From: Elusimicrobiota bacterium
GTDB lineage: Bacteria > Elusimicrobiota > Elusimicrobia > UBA1565 > UBA9628
NCBI GenBank assembly: GCA_028871595.1
Contig: JAGWMT010000126.1
Coordinates: 1 to 8,875 of the forward strand
Direction: 5' to 3'
Length of the DNA stretch: 8,875 nt
A program made the position numbers and the translations under genes. Position 1 is the first letter of the stretch. Each line of letters begins with the position of its first letter. Below are positions 510 through 7,599 of the stretch, piece by piece. Under the pieces are notes generated by a model. It searched no databases, was not told where the DNA came from, and was given only the letters and a program-made list of their open reading frames with translations.

Positions 510-1151
510 TCAGGGCGCTTTCGGACTGCGCGCCAGGCCCGACGTGAAATCCAGCGCGAACAGGATGTCGGCGCGGGGCGCGCCGCCGTCCGGAGCGCGG
601 ACATAGGCGAAGCCCAGGTACACTCCGGGCGAGACCATGCGGATCTCGTCGCGGATGGCTCCGGCGATCCAGGACGTGCCCTTGTAGTCGATGATCACCG
701 AGGGCTTGCCGTCCAGCCAGCTGGGTCCGATGAAGACCTTCGCCTTGACCGCGCGGCCGATCACCAGGCGGTTGACCAGCTCGCCGCGCCGGGCGTCGAA
801 CACCTTGCCGTGCCAGAAGAACGCGAACAGCGCCTGCGACGCTCGGCCCGCGGCGGTGCCCGGGTCCAGCGTGGCCAGCCCGTCGGATTTTCCGTCGGGA
901 ATGGGGCCCGCGGGGCTGGCGCGGTACAGCGCCTCAAGGTCCGCGCGCTTCCTGCCCATCAGCTTGCTCGTCGCGGCGGTGGCGTCGGCGTCGGGGGTCT
1001 TGTCCGCGACCGAGTCCTTGAGCTCGGTCATGCTCGCGCGGATGTCCCTGAGCTGGAACGGATCGTCCCAGTCCGCCCGGCCGGACGGCGCTTGCGCCGC
1101 CGCCAGGGACGCGGCGGCCAGGAGGACGGCGAGCGAAAGAAAAGTTTTCAT
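510..1151 (-). CDS. secreted protein of unknown function, downstream partner of the oxygenase
   Basis: The 213-residue protein begins with a clear Sec signal peptide (h-region about residues 4-19, likely cleavage after AAAQA), so it should be periplasmic or exported. A variable, charged segment follows to about residue 105. From about 110 to 200 comes a compact, conserved-looking domain: FWHGKVFD, then VNRL, then GPSWLDGKPSVIIDY, then IRDEIR, and PGVYLGFAYVR, ending in a hydrophobic strand LFALDF. The order WxGK...VN.L...IDY...RDEIR...LG faintly resembles the GXWXG/DUF4334 lipocalin-like fold, but I do not recognise the family with confidence. Its start is 4 nt after the stop of the alpha-dioxygenase fusion gene, and its SD-like GGGGA lies within that gene's last codons. 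Co-transcription and translational coupling are therefore likely. By context it may bind or process an oxidised fatty acid or help the oxygenase; that is inference only. Confidence 0.85.
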   Translation of the reverse strand: MKTFLSLAVLLAAASLAAAQAPSGRADWDDPFQLRDIRASMTELKDSVADKTPDADATAATSKLMGRKRADLEALYRASPAGPIPDGKSDGLATLDPGTAAGRASQALFAFFWHGKVFDARRGELVNRLVIGRAVKAKVFIGPSWLDGKPSVIIDYKGTSWIAGAIRDEIRMVSPGVYLGFAYVRAPDGGAPRADILFALDFTSGLARSPKAP

Positions 1152-1155
1152 GCGG

Positions 1156-4100
1156 TTATTTCCCCGTGCGGTCGCGGATCTCGTCGTACTGCAGCCCGCC
1201 CTGGTAGAAGCGGAGCAGCTGCTCGCGGCTGATGGCCGGCACCAGACGGCCCTGGAGGCCGTCTTCCCAGACCACGCGGTCGGCGAACAGCTCCAGGAGC
1301 TGGTCGGCGCGGCGCTTGGCCGCGTAGCGCCCGATCAGGCGCGACAGCCAATTGCCGCGTCCTGCCTGCGCGTCGCGGAACTGGTTGGCCTCCCGGATGC
1401 GGGCCAGGTCGTACGCGGTCAGGTAGTCGTGCATGCCGAAGTCGCGGAACAGGCGGTTGAACTCGTCCATGTCCACGTCGCCGCGCTTGATCCCCGGCTT
1501 GGAGCCGTCGGAGTAGACGCGGTTGTTGGAGTAGCCCTGCGTGTCGATGAGCCCCGGGATGTAGATGTCGAAGAAGCCGGGATTGAGGCGCGCCTTCTCC
1601 GCGGCCGGGACGTTGACCCAGGTCTTGCGCGCGAACGGCACGTGCCACATCGACGCCGTCATGAACGCCTTCGCCGCGGGCAGGCCGCTGCGCTTGAGCG
1701 CCGCGAACGTGTCGGAGAAATGGAGCAGCGGCGTCGGATTGCCGCCGACCATCACCCAGTAGCGCTTCTGCAGGGCCGTCTCTCCGGGCAAGGTGGACGG
1801 GTCGGTGCGCGGCCGGTCCGCGGTCAGCTTCGCGGCCAGTCCGACCCGGAGGGCCGTCATGTCCTCGGCGGCCCGTTTCGCCCGCTTCAGCGTCCCGATT
1901 CCCCGGGCGAGCACCACGGCCCCGAGCAGCAGCGCGCCGAGCGGATGCGCGGCGAACAGGTGGAAGGCGATCATGCCGCCGGCGTCGAGCAGGGCGAACG
2001 CCCCGATCTTCAGCGCCAACGAGGCGCGGCGGACGTCCTTTTCGGTCTTCAGCACGCCGGGCAGCGTGGCGCCCGTCGTCATTTGGATGGAGTCGTTCAG
2101 CCACGCGGCGGCCAGGAACGCCGCCGTGGGGACCACGATCAGCGCGGCCAGGGGGGCCACCGCGGCGGAGCCGATGGTCAGCGCCGCGACTCCCAGCCCG
2201 GAGAGGAAGGACCACGCGCCGTACGTCATCGCCGTTTCGAAGGAGGTCTTCGCGTTGACCGCCAGCCGCTCGTTGAGCGTGCCCGCCTTGGGAAGCGGCG
2301 CGAACATGTTCTCCACGCCCTCGACGGCCGGGCGCAGGGACGGGAAGTGACGCTCGATGAGGTGGGCGAAATTCGTGTGCTCGACGTACTCGATTCCGCT
2401 GGTCCCGTAGGTTTGGGAGCCGTACTGCACGGAGAGCAGCCGGTCGTTCTTCAGGCGCGCCGGCGCGGAGAGAACGAACACCTTGAACTGCCGGTTGCCC
2501 AGCGCGAAGCCCGTGGGCTTGCGCTCGGCCAGGATGCCGATCTGGAAGTCCACGTCGTTCACGTTCTTGTAGACGGCGGCCAGCTTGTCGGCCGCGGCCT
2601 GGTCGCCGCCGGTCAGCTCCAGGAAGGTCTTCGGGGGCTTCTCGCCCAGGCGCGTCGTGAACTTGACGTAGGTGCTGGCCTCCAGGCGCTCGCGGGTGCG
2701 GATCACGTCCACCGCGGCCAGGTCGATCTTGCGGCCGTCCTGCGTGGTCAGGTTGCGCAGCCCGTTGGGGGTGTTGTTGATGGTCAGCGCGCCTGCGGAC
2801 TCGTTGAGGAAGGTCAGCGCCCAGTCTTCCTGGGAGTGCCCGGCCATCAGGTCGCGGGACTTGAAGCCCAGCATGTCCTCGAGGGGGATCTTCTTGAGCA
2901 GGCGGACCTCGACCGTGCCGTCGGCCTCGGCCGACAGGTGCTGCATCTGGTAGAGGTCGCGCACCATGGTGTGCAGGCGGTACACGTCGGGGAACTCCTC
3001 GACGAAGCCGTAGTTCTTCCCGAAGTGCTGGGTCTTGGTGCCGGGGACGCCGAACGCCAGCTCGTTGCGCAGCGGCGCGAAGAGGAACGCGCCCAAACGC
3101 GGGTGGCGGTCCGTGAAGCGCATGATCCACAGCTTCGCCCGCTTGCCGATGAACCCGTACCAGTCGTGCCACATGCCGGCGTGCAGGATCTTGTTGGGCA
3201 GGAGGGCGCGCGTCCACTCGGTGGTGTGCAGGCGCGCGTTCAGGGCGGTCAGGCGCAGGCGCGTGGCCTGGAAAATCTGCTCGTCGTTCCAATCCGGATG
3301 CTCGGACTTGACCGCCGCGGCCACGGAGTTGTGCTCCAAGGTCCAGATCGTGTGCATCATGATCAGCGGCGGCGACATGTTGTCGTTGAAGCCGGTGAGA
3401 GGCACGCCGGGCTTCTCCGGGTCGTCGAGCAGGCGGCCGTCGGCGCCGATCTTCATCTTCCCGTCCACGCCGGCGCGCACCTGCATCTGGCGCTCGGGGC
3501 TTGAGCCGTAGATCATGGACATGTCCCACGCCGACGTCTCCATGTTGCGGTGGGTGACGGGCCCCGCATAGCCGGCCGGGAGGGTCTCGTCCTTCGCGGT
3601 GCGGTCCAAGGTCATTTCGGCGGAGCCGTCGGCGCCCAGCGGGTGGCCGGCGGGAATAGGGAACTTCAACGGGTCCTGGGCGATGGACTGGCGCTCGTGG
3701 TTCTCCCAGTCGTGGACGTTGAACTGGATATGACCCGCGGCCAGGTCGTTGAGGATGCCGGCTTCCTTGATCACGGGAACGCCGTCGGGGCCGGCCTCTC
3801 GCTTCTGAAGCTTCTCGGAGATCGTCAGCGGGGTGGGCTCCATCGTCGCCCAGTTCGGATTCGGCGGACCGGCGGGCTCGCGCAGCTGGTTGAAGCGGGC
3901 GCCGGCCTTGGCCATGGCCGGGTCCTGATCGTCGAAGTAGGAGCCGTCGGCGCTGCGGCCGTTCTTCTGCGCCTCGGTGGCGGGGGCGTATTCCTTCTTA
4001 TCCGTGGAGGGCTGCGCGTTCGCGTCCCAGATGTGGAGGCGCAGGGACTGCTCGTTCATGTACAGGTACAGTTCGCCGAGGATGGCCGGCATCGTGTCCC

Positions 4101-4779
4101 ACTTGGAGCCGATGGCGCGGTCCCACAGGGACCAGACCGCCGCCATGGCGCGCATCGCGGCGTAATGGACCGGGCCGACCTGGAAGCGGGAGGACGCGGG
4201 GGCGCCCGGAGCGGGAGGAGTCCCGTTCGAGGGCGTTCCGGCCGGAGCGTCGGAGGGGGCCAGGCGCGCGGCGTCGCGCTTGCGGGCCATGTCCGCGAAG
4301 ATGCACGGCGCGGCGGCGGCGACGCCGTTGTAGAAGGAATCCAGGGCGGCCGCGGCCATTTGCCCGTCGGCGCCGGGCCGAGCCGCGGCGTCCAGGCGCG
4401 CGCCGAGGGCGCGGCCCGATGCGAGGGCCGAGACGGGCGCGGCGGCGGCCGCCGGCGCGGGAGCGGCGGACAAGGCGGACGGGACGGACGCCGCCGGGAG
4501 CGCGGCCAACGCGGGCGCGGCGAGAGCCGCGGCGGCCGACGGACCGCTCAAGACGGACAGGCTGGGGGCGGCGGACGGAATCAGCGCCGAGGGCGCGAGG
4601 GTTTGGACGCTCAAGCTGGCCGCGGCGACTCCCGGAACACCGGAGGCGGCCCGGGCCGCTCCCAGGCTCATCGTCTGCGCGAGGGCCTGCACGGCCAGCG
4701 GACCCGGGGCGGACACCAGGAGGGCGGCGCTCAGGACGGCGGCCAAGGTCTTGCGTTCCGAAGAGGGGGAGATGATCAT
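1156..4779 (-). CDS. alpha-dioxygenase (haem peroxidase superfamily) fused to a caleosin/peroxygenase-like C-terminal domain
   Basis: This 1207-residue protein has a Sec signal peptide (residues 1-35, c-region QALAQ), an Ala/Ser/Pro-rich leader (about 40-125), and a fatty-acid alpha-dioxygenase domain (about 200-830). Plant alpha-DOX inserts O2 at C2 of fatty acids to give 2(R)-hydroperoxides. The key residues are all present. Distal haem His356 lies in VHDWENH. The Ca2+ site is Asp357 plus Thr415, Asp419 and Ser421. Carboxylate-binding His518 and Thr523 lie in LHTTEWT, with Arg780 in RLKNDR. The radical Tyr600 and proximal His603 lie in VYRLH. Residues 684-825 continue to match the plant enzyme's C-terminus. 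Hydrophobic segments follow at about 853-894 and 922-962. Residues about 1002-1207 resemble caleosin: LQKR, DIYIPG, VYSDG, FNRLF, REANQF, NWLSRLIGR, then a late ISREQLLRFYQGGL. Both caleosin haem histidines and the EF-hand loop appear lost. An AGGA site 7 nt before the ATG at 4779 supports this start. The alpha-DOX assignment is strong; the caleosin assignment is moderate and from memory. Confidence 0.92.
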   Translation of the reverse strand: MIISPSSERKTLAAVLSAALLVSAPGPLAVQALAQTMSLGAARAASGVPGVAAASLSVQTLAPSALIPSAAPSLSVLSGPSAAAALAAPALAALPAASVPSALSAAPAPAAAAAPVSALASGRALGARLDAAARPGADGQMAAAALDSFYNGVAAAAPCIFADMARKRDAARLAPSDAPAGTPSNGTPPAPGAPASSRFQVGPVHYAAMRAMAAVWSLWDRAIGSKWDTMPAILGELYLYMNEQSLRLHIWDANAQPSTDKKEYAPATEAQKNGRSADGSYFDDQDPAMAKAGARFNQLREPAGPPNPNWATMEPTPLTISEKLQKREAGPDGVPVIKEAGILNDLAAGHIQFNVHDWENHERQSIAQDPLKFPIPAGHPLGADGSAEMTLDRTAKDETLPAGYAGPVTHRNMETSAWDMSMIYGSSPERQMQVRAGVDGKMKIGADGRLLDDPEKPGVPLTGFNDNMSPPLIMMHTIWTLEHNSVAAAVKSEHPDWNDEQIFQATRLRLTALNARLHTTEWTRALLPNKILHAGMWHDWYGFIGKRAKLWIMRFTDRHPRLGAFLFAPLRNELAFGVPGTKTQHFGKNYGFVEEFPDVYRLHTMVRDLYQMQHLSAEADGTVEVRLLKKIPLEDMLGFKSRDLMAGHSQEDWALTFLNESAGALTINNTPNGLRNLTTQDGRKIDLAAVDVIRTRERLEASTYVKFTTRLGEKPPKTFLELTGGDQAAADKLAAVYKNVNDVDFQIGILAERKPTGFALGNRQFKVFVLSAPARLKNDRLLSVQYGSQTYGTSGIEYVEHTNFAHLIERHFPSLRPAVEGVENMFAPLPKAGTLNERLAVNAKTSFETAMTYGAWSFLSGLGVAALTIGSAAVAPLAALIVVPTAAFLAAAWLNDSIQMTTGATLPGVLKTEKDVRRASLALKIGAFALLDAGGMIAFHLFAAHPLGALLLGAVVLARGIGTLKRAKRAAEDMTALRVGLAAKLTADRPRTDPSTLPGETALQKRYWVMVGGNPTPLLHFSDTFAALKRSGLPAAKAFMTASMWHVPFARKTWVNVPAAEKARLNPGFFDIYIPGLIDTQGYSNNRVYSDGSKPGIKRGDVDMDEFNRLFRDFGMHDYLTAYDLARIREANQFRDAQAGRGNWLSRLIGRYAAKRRADQLLELFADRVVWEDGLQGRLVPAISREQLLRFYQGGLQYDEIRDRTGK

Positions 4780-6068: not shown

Positions 6069-6832
6069 CAGAACTCCTTCTGCTCGAAGACCTGCACGGA
6101 GAGCAGGAAGCAGGCCGCGGAATAGGCCAGCGCGTACGCGGCCGCGGCGGCCATCCACGCGGCGGAGGGGAGCCCGCCGTGCCACGCGTCCCGGTAGTTG
6201 AGGCTCGCGAAATCGGGCGCCGCGTGGGAGAACGCCAGCAGCGCGGTGCGCAGGAGGGGGCTCCCCGATTTCTCGGCGACGAAGCGGATCTCGGCCGTGA
6301 AGTGCCCCAGGATCCAGAAGAAGCCCGAGAACGACATCGCCGCCGCCTCGGAGGTGAGCGCCAGGGACAGCAGGAGCGCGAGCGCCCCCATCATGGCCGT
6401 CTTGGCGAACGAGCAGGCCCACGCCAGCGCGTACGCGCCGCCGCCGCCCCAGCCCAGGAGCGTCAGCAGGCTCCAGTGGAACAGGCCCATGGCCGCCATG
6501 CCGACGCCGACCGCGGCCAAGGTTCCCAGGAAACGGCCGAGCAGGTAGTGCCAGCGCTTGACCGGATGGGTCAGGATCAGGAACACCGCGCGCGACTCGA
6601 TCTCGGCCAGGATCAGGTGCACGGTCAGGAAAACGACGGAGACCAAGGCGATGATCTCGTTGGCGGCCAGCCCCAGGTCCAGCAGCATGCGCCCGCGCTC
6701 GTCCTGGGCCAGCGCGGAGATCACCAGCCCGCCGGTGATGAGCACCAGGCCGAACAGGGCGGCGCTCAGCCAGACCTTGTGGCGCACGTGCTCGCGGAAG
6801 GTGTATGTGAAGACGGCCTTGATCGTTTCCAT
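6068..6832 (-). CDS. ABC-2-type transporter permease
   Basis: The 254-residue integral membrane protein has about six hydrophobic segments, near residues 20-41, 58-78, 100-122, 133-160, 164-180 and 224-247. The cytosolic loop after the second segment reads ILTHPVKRWHYLLGR, the P-x-R/K-x-x-Y-L-L-G-R/K signature common in ABC-2 export permeases. The tail VQVFEQKEF also fits that family. It should form the membrane pore for the ATPase encoded just upstream, with a 2-nt gap. The substrate is unknown; single-pair ABC-2 systems handle lipids, polysaccharides, drugs, or (NosFY-like) respiratory maturation factors. I placed the start at 6832, not at the far end of the longer open frame at 7048, because that extension would overlap ATPase coding sequence and lacks a membrane-protein character. 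Confidence 0.88.
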   Translation of the reverse strand: METIKAVFTYTFREHVRHKVWLSAALFGLVLITGGLVISALAQDERGRMLLDLGLAANEIIALVSVVFLTVHLILAEIESRAVFLILTHPVKRWHYLLGRFLGTLAAVGVGMAAMGLFHWSLLTLLGWGGGGAYALAWACSFAKTAMMGALALLLSLALTSEAAAMSFSGFFWILGHFTAEIRFVAEKSGSPLLRTALLAFSHAAPDFASLNYRDAWHGGLPSAAWMAAAAAYALAYSAACFLLSVQVFEQKEF

Positions 6833-6834
6833 GT

Positions 6835-7599
6835 TCAGCCCAGCCTGATTTCGCCGATGCCGTCGGTGCGCGCGACCGCCGCGGTAAAGGCGTTCTCCAG
6901 CGCGTCGGGGCGCCCGCGCCATTCGTCCTGCGTCATGACCTTGGCCAGGCGCCCGGCGCTCAGGATCCCGATGCGGTCGCACACCTTCTCGACCTCGGAG
7001 ATGTCGTGCGACGAGAACAGCACGGTCTTGCCCTTGCCCTTCAACCACAGGATCAAGGACCGGACTTCCTTGATGGCCAGCGGGTCCAGGCCGGTGACGG
7101 GCTCGTCCAGGATCACCAACTCGGGCTCGTGGATCAGCGCCTGGGCCAGGCTGGCGCGCTGGAGCATGCCTTTCGAATACTCGGAGAGCCGGCGGTCCAT
7201 GGCGTGGCCCAGGCCGATCTTCTCCAGCATCCGGGCGACCTTCGCCTCGCGCTCGGCGGCGGGAACGCGGGAAAGGGCGGCGAACAGGCGCAGGTTCTCG
7301 CGTCCGGTCAGGGACTTGTTCAGGTACGCCGCTTCCGGCGCGTAGCCGATACGGGCCAGAACCTCCACGTCGGGGACGCGCCGGCCCAGGACCTCGACGT
7401 CGCCGGTGGTGGGGAGGTGCAGGCCCATGAGCAGCTTGATCGCGGTGGTCTTGCCCGAGCCGTTGAGCCCCAGCAGGCCGAACACCTCTCCGGTCCGGAC
7501 CTCCAGGTCCAGTCCGTCCAGGCCCATGGTCTCCGTGACCTTGCCCAGATGGGAGCGGCGGTAGATTTTCCCGACATGTTGGAAGCGAAGCGCGTTCAT
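6835..7599 (-). CDS. ABC transporter ATP-binding protein
   Basis: The 254-residue protein carries the full ABC ATPase motif set: Walker A GLNGSGKTT (44-52), a Q-loop position occupied by Glu89 in YAPEAAY, signature YSKGM (141-145) followed by Gln147, Walker B LVILDE (161-166), D-loop GLD and switch His199 in SSHD. The Glu in place of Gln at the Q-loop and the YSKGMxQR signature are typical of the CcmA/NosF/DRA-type ATPases that pair with ABC-2 permeases. It should hydrolyse ATP on the cytosolic face to drive the permease encoded 2 nt downstream. It starts 4 nt after the HupE-like gene. A GGGA site lies just before the ATG and overlaps the end of that gene. Confidence 0.96.
   Translation of the reverse strand: MNALRFQHVGKIYRRSHLGKVTETMGLDGLDLEVRTGEVFGLLGLNGSGKTTAIKLLMGLHLPTTGDVEVLGRRVPDVEVLARIGYAPEAAYLNKSLTGRENLRLFAALSRVPAAEREAKVARMLEKIGLGHAMDRRLSEYSKGMLQRASLAQALIHEPELVILDEPVTGLDPLAIKEVRSLILWLKGKGKTVLFSSHDISEVEKVCDRIGILSAGRLAKVMTQDEWRGRPDALENAFTAAVARTDGIGEIRLG

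What the first reader, a model, noticed from the sequence alone, without database searches (positions are those of the whole stretch)
1156..4779. Bacterial alpha-dioxygenase fused to a caleosin/peroxygenase-like domain in one polypeptide
Seen: residues ~200-830 match plant alpha-DOX with every catalytic landmark (His356, Tyr600, His603, His518, Thr523, Arg780, Ca2+ ligands), and residues ~1002-1207 match caleosin in motif order. Known: in Arabidopsis, alpha-DOX1 and caleosin CLO3 co-localise on oil bodies and act in sequence, 2-hydroperoxide formation then conversion to a 2-hydroxy fatty acid. Inference: this bacterium has merged the two steps in a single secreted or membrane-bound protein, a possible oxylipin-making enzyme. 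I know of no described bacterial fusion of this kind.
Basis: partly seen in the sequence, partly recalled or inferred. Interest (0 to 1): 0.9.

Follow-up and report, generated by a model that had tools for sequence, protein, structure and literature searches.

The report
Bacterial alpha-dioxygenase with degenerate caleosin tail
Some bacteria of the phylum Elusimicrobiota make one large protein that joins a plant-type fatty-acid-oxidising enzyme to a relative of the plant oil-body protein that works next to it in Arabidopsis, but the second half has lost the residues known to make it a working peroxygenase.

Summary
The interpretation only partly holds. The two haem histidines of caleosin/peroxygenases are Arg1006 and Gly1082 here; the second is His in 0 of 30 readable family members. 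The EF-hand loop lacks its first three ligands. Yet the tail is about as conserved as the alpha-DOX domain. Best reading: an exported alpha-DOX with a hydrophobic helical anchor and a caleosin-derived, probably non-catalytic lipid/scaffold domain, rather than a two-step 2-hydroxy-fatty-acid synthase. My literature searches found no report of such a fusion.

The parts
4675..4779 (-). N-terminal hydrophobic export-like signal, residues 1-35 (MIISPSSERKTLAAVLSAALLVSAPGPLAVQALAQ)
   Evidence: sequence; hydropathy peak centred on residues 20-24; similar N-termini match other large proteins of the phylum. No signal-peptide predictor was available.
4186..4674 (-). Ala/Pro-rich low-complexity spacer, residues 36-198
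   Evidence: sequence; residues 1-198 are 22-75% identical to the window in the 27 other members with enough aligned residues, the near-copy P0002 left out
2290..4185 (-). alpha-dioxygenase module, residues 199-830 (catalytic core 225-830)
1825..2277 (-). helical hydrophobic linker, residues 835-985, four long predicted helices, three membrane-like stretches
   Evidence: AlphaFold secondary structure; hydropathy; replaced by a 97-98-residue linker with no membrane-like stretch in P0026-P0028
1162..1794 (-). caleosin-like domain, residues 996-1206, lacking both haem histidines and EF-hand ligands 1, 3 and 5
   Evidence: hhalign E 1.5e-24 to stand-alone caleosins; PF05042 in 14 of 31 members; 87% secondary-structure agreement with a separately modelled stand-alone caleosin
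1762..1764 (-). Arg1006 at the position of haem ligand His70 (AtCLO1 numbering, recalled)
1534..1536 (-). Gly1082 at the position of haem ligand His138 (AtCLO1 numbering, recalled)
1642..1644 (-). His1046, His in 30 of 31 fused rows; also His in 25 of 37 stand-alone caleosins
510..1151 (-). next gene downstream, 4 bases after the fusion's stop codon: 213-aa export-like protein of unknown family, possible partner
   Evidence: no Pfam family at E<=1; homologue just downstream of the fusion in L115 (E 7e-31; also seen in the overlapping L090), no other hit at E<=0.01 in the 121 sequences searched, several of which overlap

Best explanation
An exported, probably membrane-attached fatty-acid alpha-dioxygenase of Elusimicrobiota. 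Its haem peroxidase-fold domain abstracts the alpha hydrogen of a free fatty acid through the Tyr600 radical and adds O2 at C2, giving a 2-hydroperoxy fatty acid, which breaks down to CO2 and a shortened aldehyde unless reduced. The C-terminal domain descends from a caleosin/peroxygenase but has lost the two known haem histidines and most calcium ligands. It most likely acts as a non-catalytic scaffold that, with the hydrophobic helices before it, holds the dioxygenase at lipid surfaces and/or handles substrate or product. SHOWN by sequence and structure prediction: the fusion, its single grouping, intact alpha-DOX residues, caleosin homology, loss of the known haem residues and of EF-hand ligands 1, 3 and 5, strong conservation of the tail. 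INFERRED: export, membrane attachment, catalytic activity, the scaffold role.
Against: No biochemistry exists. P0026-P0028 lack membrane-like stretches in the linker, so anchoring by the linker is not universal. Nine of 31 rows keep His at the first haem position and His1046 is His in 30 of 31; seven of 30 have a His one column from the second haem position; so a rewired haem or metal site is not excluded. EF-hand position 12 is Asp in the window and in 21 of 28 relatives, and P0026-P0028 carry an acidic insertion in the loop that I did not test. I had no coordinates to look for a new site or an interdomain channel. Localisation rests on hydropathy only.
Confidence: 0.6

Rival explanations
1. 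One reading: a bifunctional enzyme in which the alpha-DOX makes a 2-hydroperoxide and the caleosin-like domain, with a rewired haem site (for example using His1046), reduces it to a 2-hydroxy fatty acid in the same polypeptide.
For: The two domains are the partners coupled in Arabidopsis (review PMC6914826, passage); the tail is about as conserved as the enzyme; His1046 is His in 30 of 31; a stand-alone caleosin with both histidines exists in the same phylum (L083).
Against: Arg and Gly at the two haem positions of the window; second position His in 0 of 30 family rows and in 0 of the 5 further tails that span it (L113, L115-L118); EF-hand positions 1, 3, 5 lost. By the field's own criterion a member lacking the EF hand and both histidines is 'not a true caleosin' (AtCLO7, PMC5957377, passage).
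Confidence: 0.15
2. The C-terminal domain is a regulatory or assembly module (dimerisation, or binding a partner such as the 213-aa protein encoded downstream), with no lipid-related role.
For: Conserved domain without the known catalytic residues; a second, partial copy in P0020 and P0023 and a copy without any alpha-DOX in L113; the downstream gene is 4 bp away and a homologue lies next to the L115 fusion.
Against: Ancestry is from a lipid-droplet family and the module travels with hydrophobic helices in most members; the downstream gene was found beside only 2 of 9 fusion loci with flanking DNA (window and L115; not L001-L003, L114, L116-L118).
Confidence: 0.2
3. Artefact: two genes joined by an assembly error, or chance resemblance of the tail to caleosin.
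For: The window copy alone gives no Pfam Caleosin hit at E<=1.
Against: 30 other database proteins (both modules found in all) and five further genome-derived genes have the same order in one frame; profile-profile E 1.5e-24 with a negative control; two separately built structure models agree.
Confidence: 0.01

Closest known systems
Plant and cyanobacterial alpha-dioxygenases (rice 4kvj, Arabidopsis 4hhr; CalDOX/LepDOX of PMC8720084)
   Different: The plant entries are stand-alone chains of 621-652 residues; here there is an export-like signal, an Ala/Pro spacer, hydrophobic helices and a caleosin-derived tail. The survey in PMC8720084 discarded sequences over 1000 aa (passage), which would have removed most of this family.
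Caleosin/peroxygenase (CLO/PXG, PF05042)
   Same: Co-linear sequence and secondary structure over about 180 residues
   Different: Both haem histidines and EF-hand ligands 1, 3 and 5 missing in the window; a 10-residue insertion before the second haem region relative to P0034; fused to an oxygenase
Arabidopsis alpha-DOX1 + CLO3/RD20 on leaf oil bodies (two proteins)
   Same: The same two families acting together
   Different: Two separate proteins with an active peroxygenase; here one polypeptide with the known peroxygenase residues lost
Fungal dioxygenase-P450 fusions (linoleate diol synthase type; recalled, and abstract start of PMC13049297)
   Same: An oxygenase related to cyclooxygenases fused to a hydroperoxide-handling partner
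   Different: The partner there is an active P450, here a caleosin relative; different oxygenase subfamily

Membership tests
alpha-dioxygenase | peroxidase-cyclooxygenase fold closest to plant alpha-DOX | tested here: met
alpha-dioxygenase | distal His, proximal His, catalytic Tyr, carboxylate-binding His/Thr/Arg | tested here: met
   His356 (30 of 31, one gap), His603, Tyr600, His518, Thr523, Arg775 (each 31 of 31)
alpha-dioxygenase | fatty-acid alpha-oxygenation activity | not testable with these tools
   needs biochemistry
caleosin/peroxygenase (CLO/PXG) | sequence homology to PF05042 | tested here: met
   through the family profile; the window alone gives no Pfam hit
caleosin/peroxygenase (CLO/PXG) | two invariant haem-coordinating histidines | tested here: not met
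   Arg1006 and Gly1082
caleosin/peroxygenase (CLO/PXG) | single calcium-binding EF-hand | tested here: not met
   positions 1, 3, 5 are Val, Gly, Pro; only position 12 (Asp) is acidic
caleosin/peroxygenase (CLO/PXG) | lipid-binding segment with proline knot | tested here: inconclusive
   the corresponding helix (residues ~1035-1049) is predicted; no clear proline knot by eye; hydropathy peaks sit in the preceding linker
caleosin/peroxygenase (CLO/PXG) | peroxygenase activity | not testable with these tools
   needs biochemistry

The most novel reading that the evidence does not exclude
A self-contained bacterial oxylipin synthase: the alpha-DOX passes its 2-hydroperoxide to a caleosin-derived domain that has evolved a new active site (for example around the near-invariant His1046) and delivers a 2-hydroxy fatty acid or another product. 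The alpha-DOX/caleosin partnership seen on Arabidopsis oil bodies would then have arisen at least twice, once as a gene fusion in bacteria.
Probability: 0.15. Interest if true: 0.85.

Novelty: new variant of a known kind. Interest (0 to 1): 0.6.

Why it matters
The alpha-DOX/caleosin pairing was known as two co-operating plant proteins. Finding both families fused in an unrelated bacterial phylum suggests the functional link may be general, and offers a single-chain system to test whether caleosins do more than reduce hydroperoxides: here the caleosin fold is conserved after the known haem residues and most calcium ligands are gone. It also adds stand-alone caleosin homologues in Elusimicrobiota, one of them with both haem histidines; the section on bacterial CLO/PXG that I read in PMC5957377 names Sorangium as the bacterium that has them.

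Tried and rejected
Direct Pfam test of the window copy for caleosin: negative at E<=1; kept as a result against the claim and resolved by family profiles. NCBIfam gave nothing for the three proteins sent. PDB sequence search with the tail of P0030 (as L002 DNA) gave only two haemoglobin entries at E 0.5-0.6. Foldseek with a stand-alone caleosin model gave EF-hand proteins, best E 8.3e-4 with TM about 0.3, and no caleosin entry among the 50 rows shown. VIA-align covered the tail poorly because the alpha-DOX filled the list, so absence of a tail match there means nothing. Gene-neighbour test: of 76 alpha-DOX loci outside Elusimicrobiota (L004-L036, L038-L080, flanks up to 8 kb) none had a full caleosin; weak 75-residue hits in L061 (7e-4) and L004 (2e-3) were not followed up. 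The first scan of genome contigs with the window protein found no relative; the second, with alignment A1, found 106, of which 80 were kept. Genome counts are lower bounds: for genomes with many candidates only two were scored; 34 of 294 genomes matched, most of them only through the shared N-terminal region. The domain trees conflict for P0020 and P0023 (alpha-DOX tree: with P0021-P0025; tail tree: near the base); I read this as a second tail copy of other origin, untested. Both trees carry long-branch warnings and are drawn with a midpoint root; their rows were my selection (25 unfused alpha-DOXs from the 120 proteins and 80 loci listed; 16 of 30 usable family tails plus L113, L115, L116, L118). 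EF-hand columns printed were off by one and were redone.

On re-checking the draft I corrected these: two of the three stand-alone caleosins of the phylum lack one haem histidine each (L084, L085); four family members, not three, are truncated; EF-hand position 12 is acidic; tail conservation is given as 15 of 29. Confidence in the best explanation went from 0.62 to 0.60 for the near-column histidines and the acidic EF residue.
Full report
WHAT IS THERE. The minus strand at 1156-4779 holds one uninterrupted 1207-aa frame. It reads: hydrophobic export-like signal (1-35), Ala/Pro-rich spacer (36-198), alpha-dioxygenase (core 225-830), helical hydrophobic linker (835-985), caleosin-like domain (996-1206). 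A 213-aa export-like protein of unknown family starts 4 bases later on the same strand (510-1151), then an OmpA-domain protein that reads as a Pal-like lipoprotein (1-450). A divergent NUDIX gene lies on the other side.

CALEOSIN-LIKE TAIL. The window copy alone does not reach Pfam Caleosin. The homology is nevertheless secure. Fourteen of 31 family members hit PF05042 at E<=0.01; of seven scored with bits, two pass Pfam's cut-off. Profile-profile comparison with 37 stand-alone caleosins gives 99.6%, E 1.5e-24, over 179 columns, while the neighbouring linker gives 0.1%. The window hits an HMM of stand-alone caleosins at 2.2e-8 (2.8e-7 and 3.3e-7 in the larger sets). Two AlphaFold models made from non-overlapping alignments (A3 without caleosins, A4 without fused proteins) agree in secondary state at 87% of 172 aligned residues, against 33-75% when shifted by 1-12 residues and at most 64% elsewhere in the window model.

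WHAT THE TAIL HAS LOST. Peroxygenase activity of CLO/PXG proteins needs haem held by two invariant histidines, and one EF-hand is a diagnostic feature (PMC6309107 and PMC5957377, passages). At the haem positions the window has Arg1006 and Gly1082. Stand-alone caleosins have His in 35 and 36 of 37, both in 34; fused proteins have R20/H9/K2 of 31 at the first and no His among 30 at the second. Seven of the 30 have a His one column from the second position, all seven with Arg or Lys at the first. Five additional tails (L113, L115-L118) have Arg and Gly; L114 lacks that half of the domain. EF-hand positions 1, 3 and 5 are Val, Gly and Pro; position 12 is Asp. In the 28 relatives aligned there, position 1 is never acidic, position 3 is Asp in 8, position 5 is Asp or Glu in 17, and position 12 is Asp in 21, so calcium binding is doubtful rather than excluded across the family.

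THE TAIL IS CONSERVED. Against the window, tail identity equals or exceeds alpha-DOX identity in 15 of 29 members and is lower in 14 (for example P0003 86 vs 82%, P0030 50 vs 44%, but P0023 44 vs 58%). The linker is less conserved than the tail in 28 of 29. That is the pattern of a repurposed domain, not a dying one. His1046 is His in 30 of 31 and is the best candidate for any new site.

DISTRIBUTION AND ORIGIN. Thirty database proteins besides the window carry both modules; four look truncated (P0002, P0015, P0017, P0018). All eight that carry an organism name are Elusimicrobia/Elusimicrobiota; P0002 is 99% identical to the window. The window's own genome is not held. Among 294 genomes of the phylum of L001, an Elusimicrobia MAG, seven gave the fusion (G001, G003, G191, G212, G220, G274, G293), though G212's fused protein keeps only part of the tail, and one gave an unfused alpha-DOX (G004). 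Six of the 294 had Pfam Caleosin hits, three of them stand-alone proteins (G201, G212, G279); of these three only L083 (G279) has both haem histidines, L084 has Arg at the second and L085 Arg at the first. The fused alpha-DOX domains form one group of 36 rows against 25 unfused ones (100/100), and 20 family tails (counting L113, which has no alpha-DOX) form one group against 37 stand-alone caleosins (100/100). A single fusion event is therefore sufficient, with the caveat that both trees are unrooted selections. Domain shuffling continued: P0020 and P0023 carry a second, partial tail copy, L113 carries linker plus tail without alpha-DOX, and P0026-P0028 have a plain linker in place of the hydrophobic one.

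HOW IT PROBABLY WORKS. The enzyme half should make 2-hydroperoxy fatty acids, which are converted to the 2-hydroxy acid or decompose to CO2 and shortened aldehydes (PMC6914826, passage). In Arabidopsis the reduction is coupled to CLO3 (same passage). Here the caleosin-like half lacks the known catalytic apparatus, so I favour a scaffold or lipid-surface role, with the hydrophobic helices anchoring the exported enzyme. Membrane attachment, export and scaffold function are inferences; the rewired-peroxygenase alternative is kept at 0.15.

NOVELTY. Searches of the open-access library for caleosin + alpha-dioxygenase (18 papers, all listed; titles and abstract starts seen), a five-term set with bacteria, fusion and Elusimicrobi (20 of 247 listed), caleosin in prokaryotes (15 of 32 listed), cyanobacterial alpha-dioxygenase (11), Elusimicrobi + caleosin (0 papers), Elusimicrobi + oxylipin (2, unrelated by title) and a domain-fusion query (0) showed no description of such a fusion. 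Section 17 of PMC5957377 (read) names Sorangium as the bacterium with CLO/PXG-like proteins. The alpha-DOX survey PMC8720084 names five bacterial phyla, not Elusimicrobiota, and discarded sequences over 1000 aa (passages). It is a new variant built from known kinds, made more puzzling by the lost active site.

Noticed in passing
window 4675-4779; genomes of the phylum: The N-terminal pattern (hydrophobic run...APGPLA...A.AQ, then Ala/Pro-rich spacer) matches N-termini of many other large predicted proteins in these genomes; it may be a phylum-specific export signal.
   Followed up: no
L083 1483-2106(-), L084 946-2124(+), L085 994-2064(+): Stand-alone caleosin homologues in Elusimicrobiota genomes, with export-like N-termini by eye; only L083 has both haem histidines. 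Two of the 35 proteins found with L083 are named Elusimicrobia and some are named 'peroxygenase'.
   Followed up: partly
L113 5062-6828(-): A 588-aa protein with the hydrophobic helices and caleosin-like domain but no alpha-dioxygenase, in genome G212, which also has an alpha-DOX fusion with a partial tail (L114) and a stand-alone caleosin homologue (L084).
   Followed up: partly
P0020 (1542 aa), P0023 (1393 aa): Two caleosin-like copies after the alpha-DOX; the first keeps only the C-terminal half, the second keeps the first haem histidine.
   Followed up: partly
window 510-1151(-); L115 about 6805-7188(+): 213-aa export-like protein with no Pfam family, directly downstream of the fusion in both places; a weak tblastn relative (33%, E 3e-5) on a Nocardia farcinica replicon.
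   Followed up: partly
L037 7626-9743(+) and 11115-12635(+): An unfused Elusimicrobia alpha-DOX (705 aa) with a gene that reads as an aldehyde dehydrogenase (by eye, not searched) as second gene downstream, which would fit an alpha-oxidation route.
   Followed up: no
P0026-P0028, alignment: These three carry an acidic 11-residue insertion at the degenerate EF-hand loop and a plain linker instead of the hydrophobic helices; possibly a distinct subtype that binds calcium.
   Followed up: no
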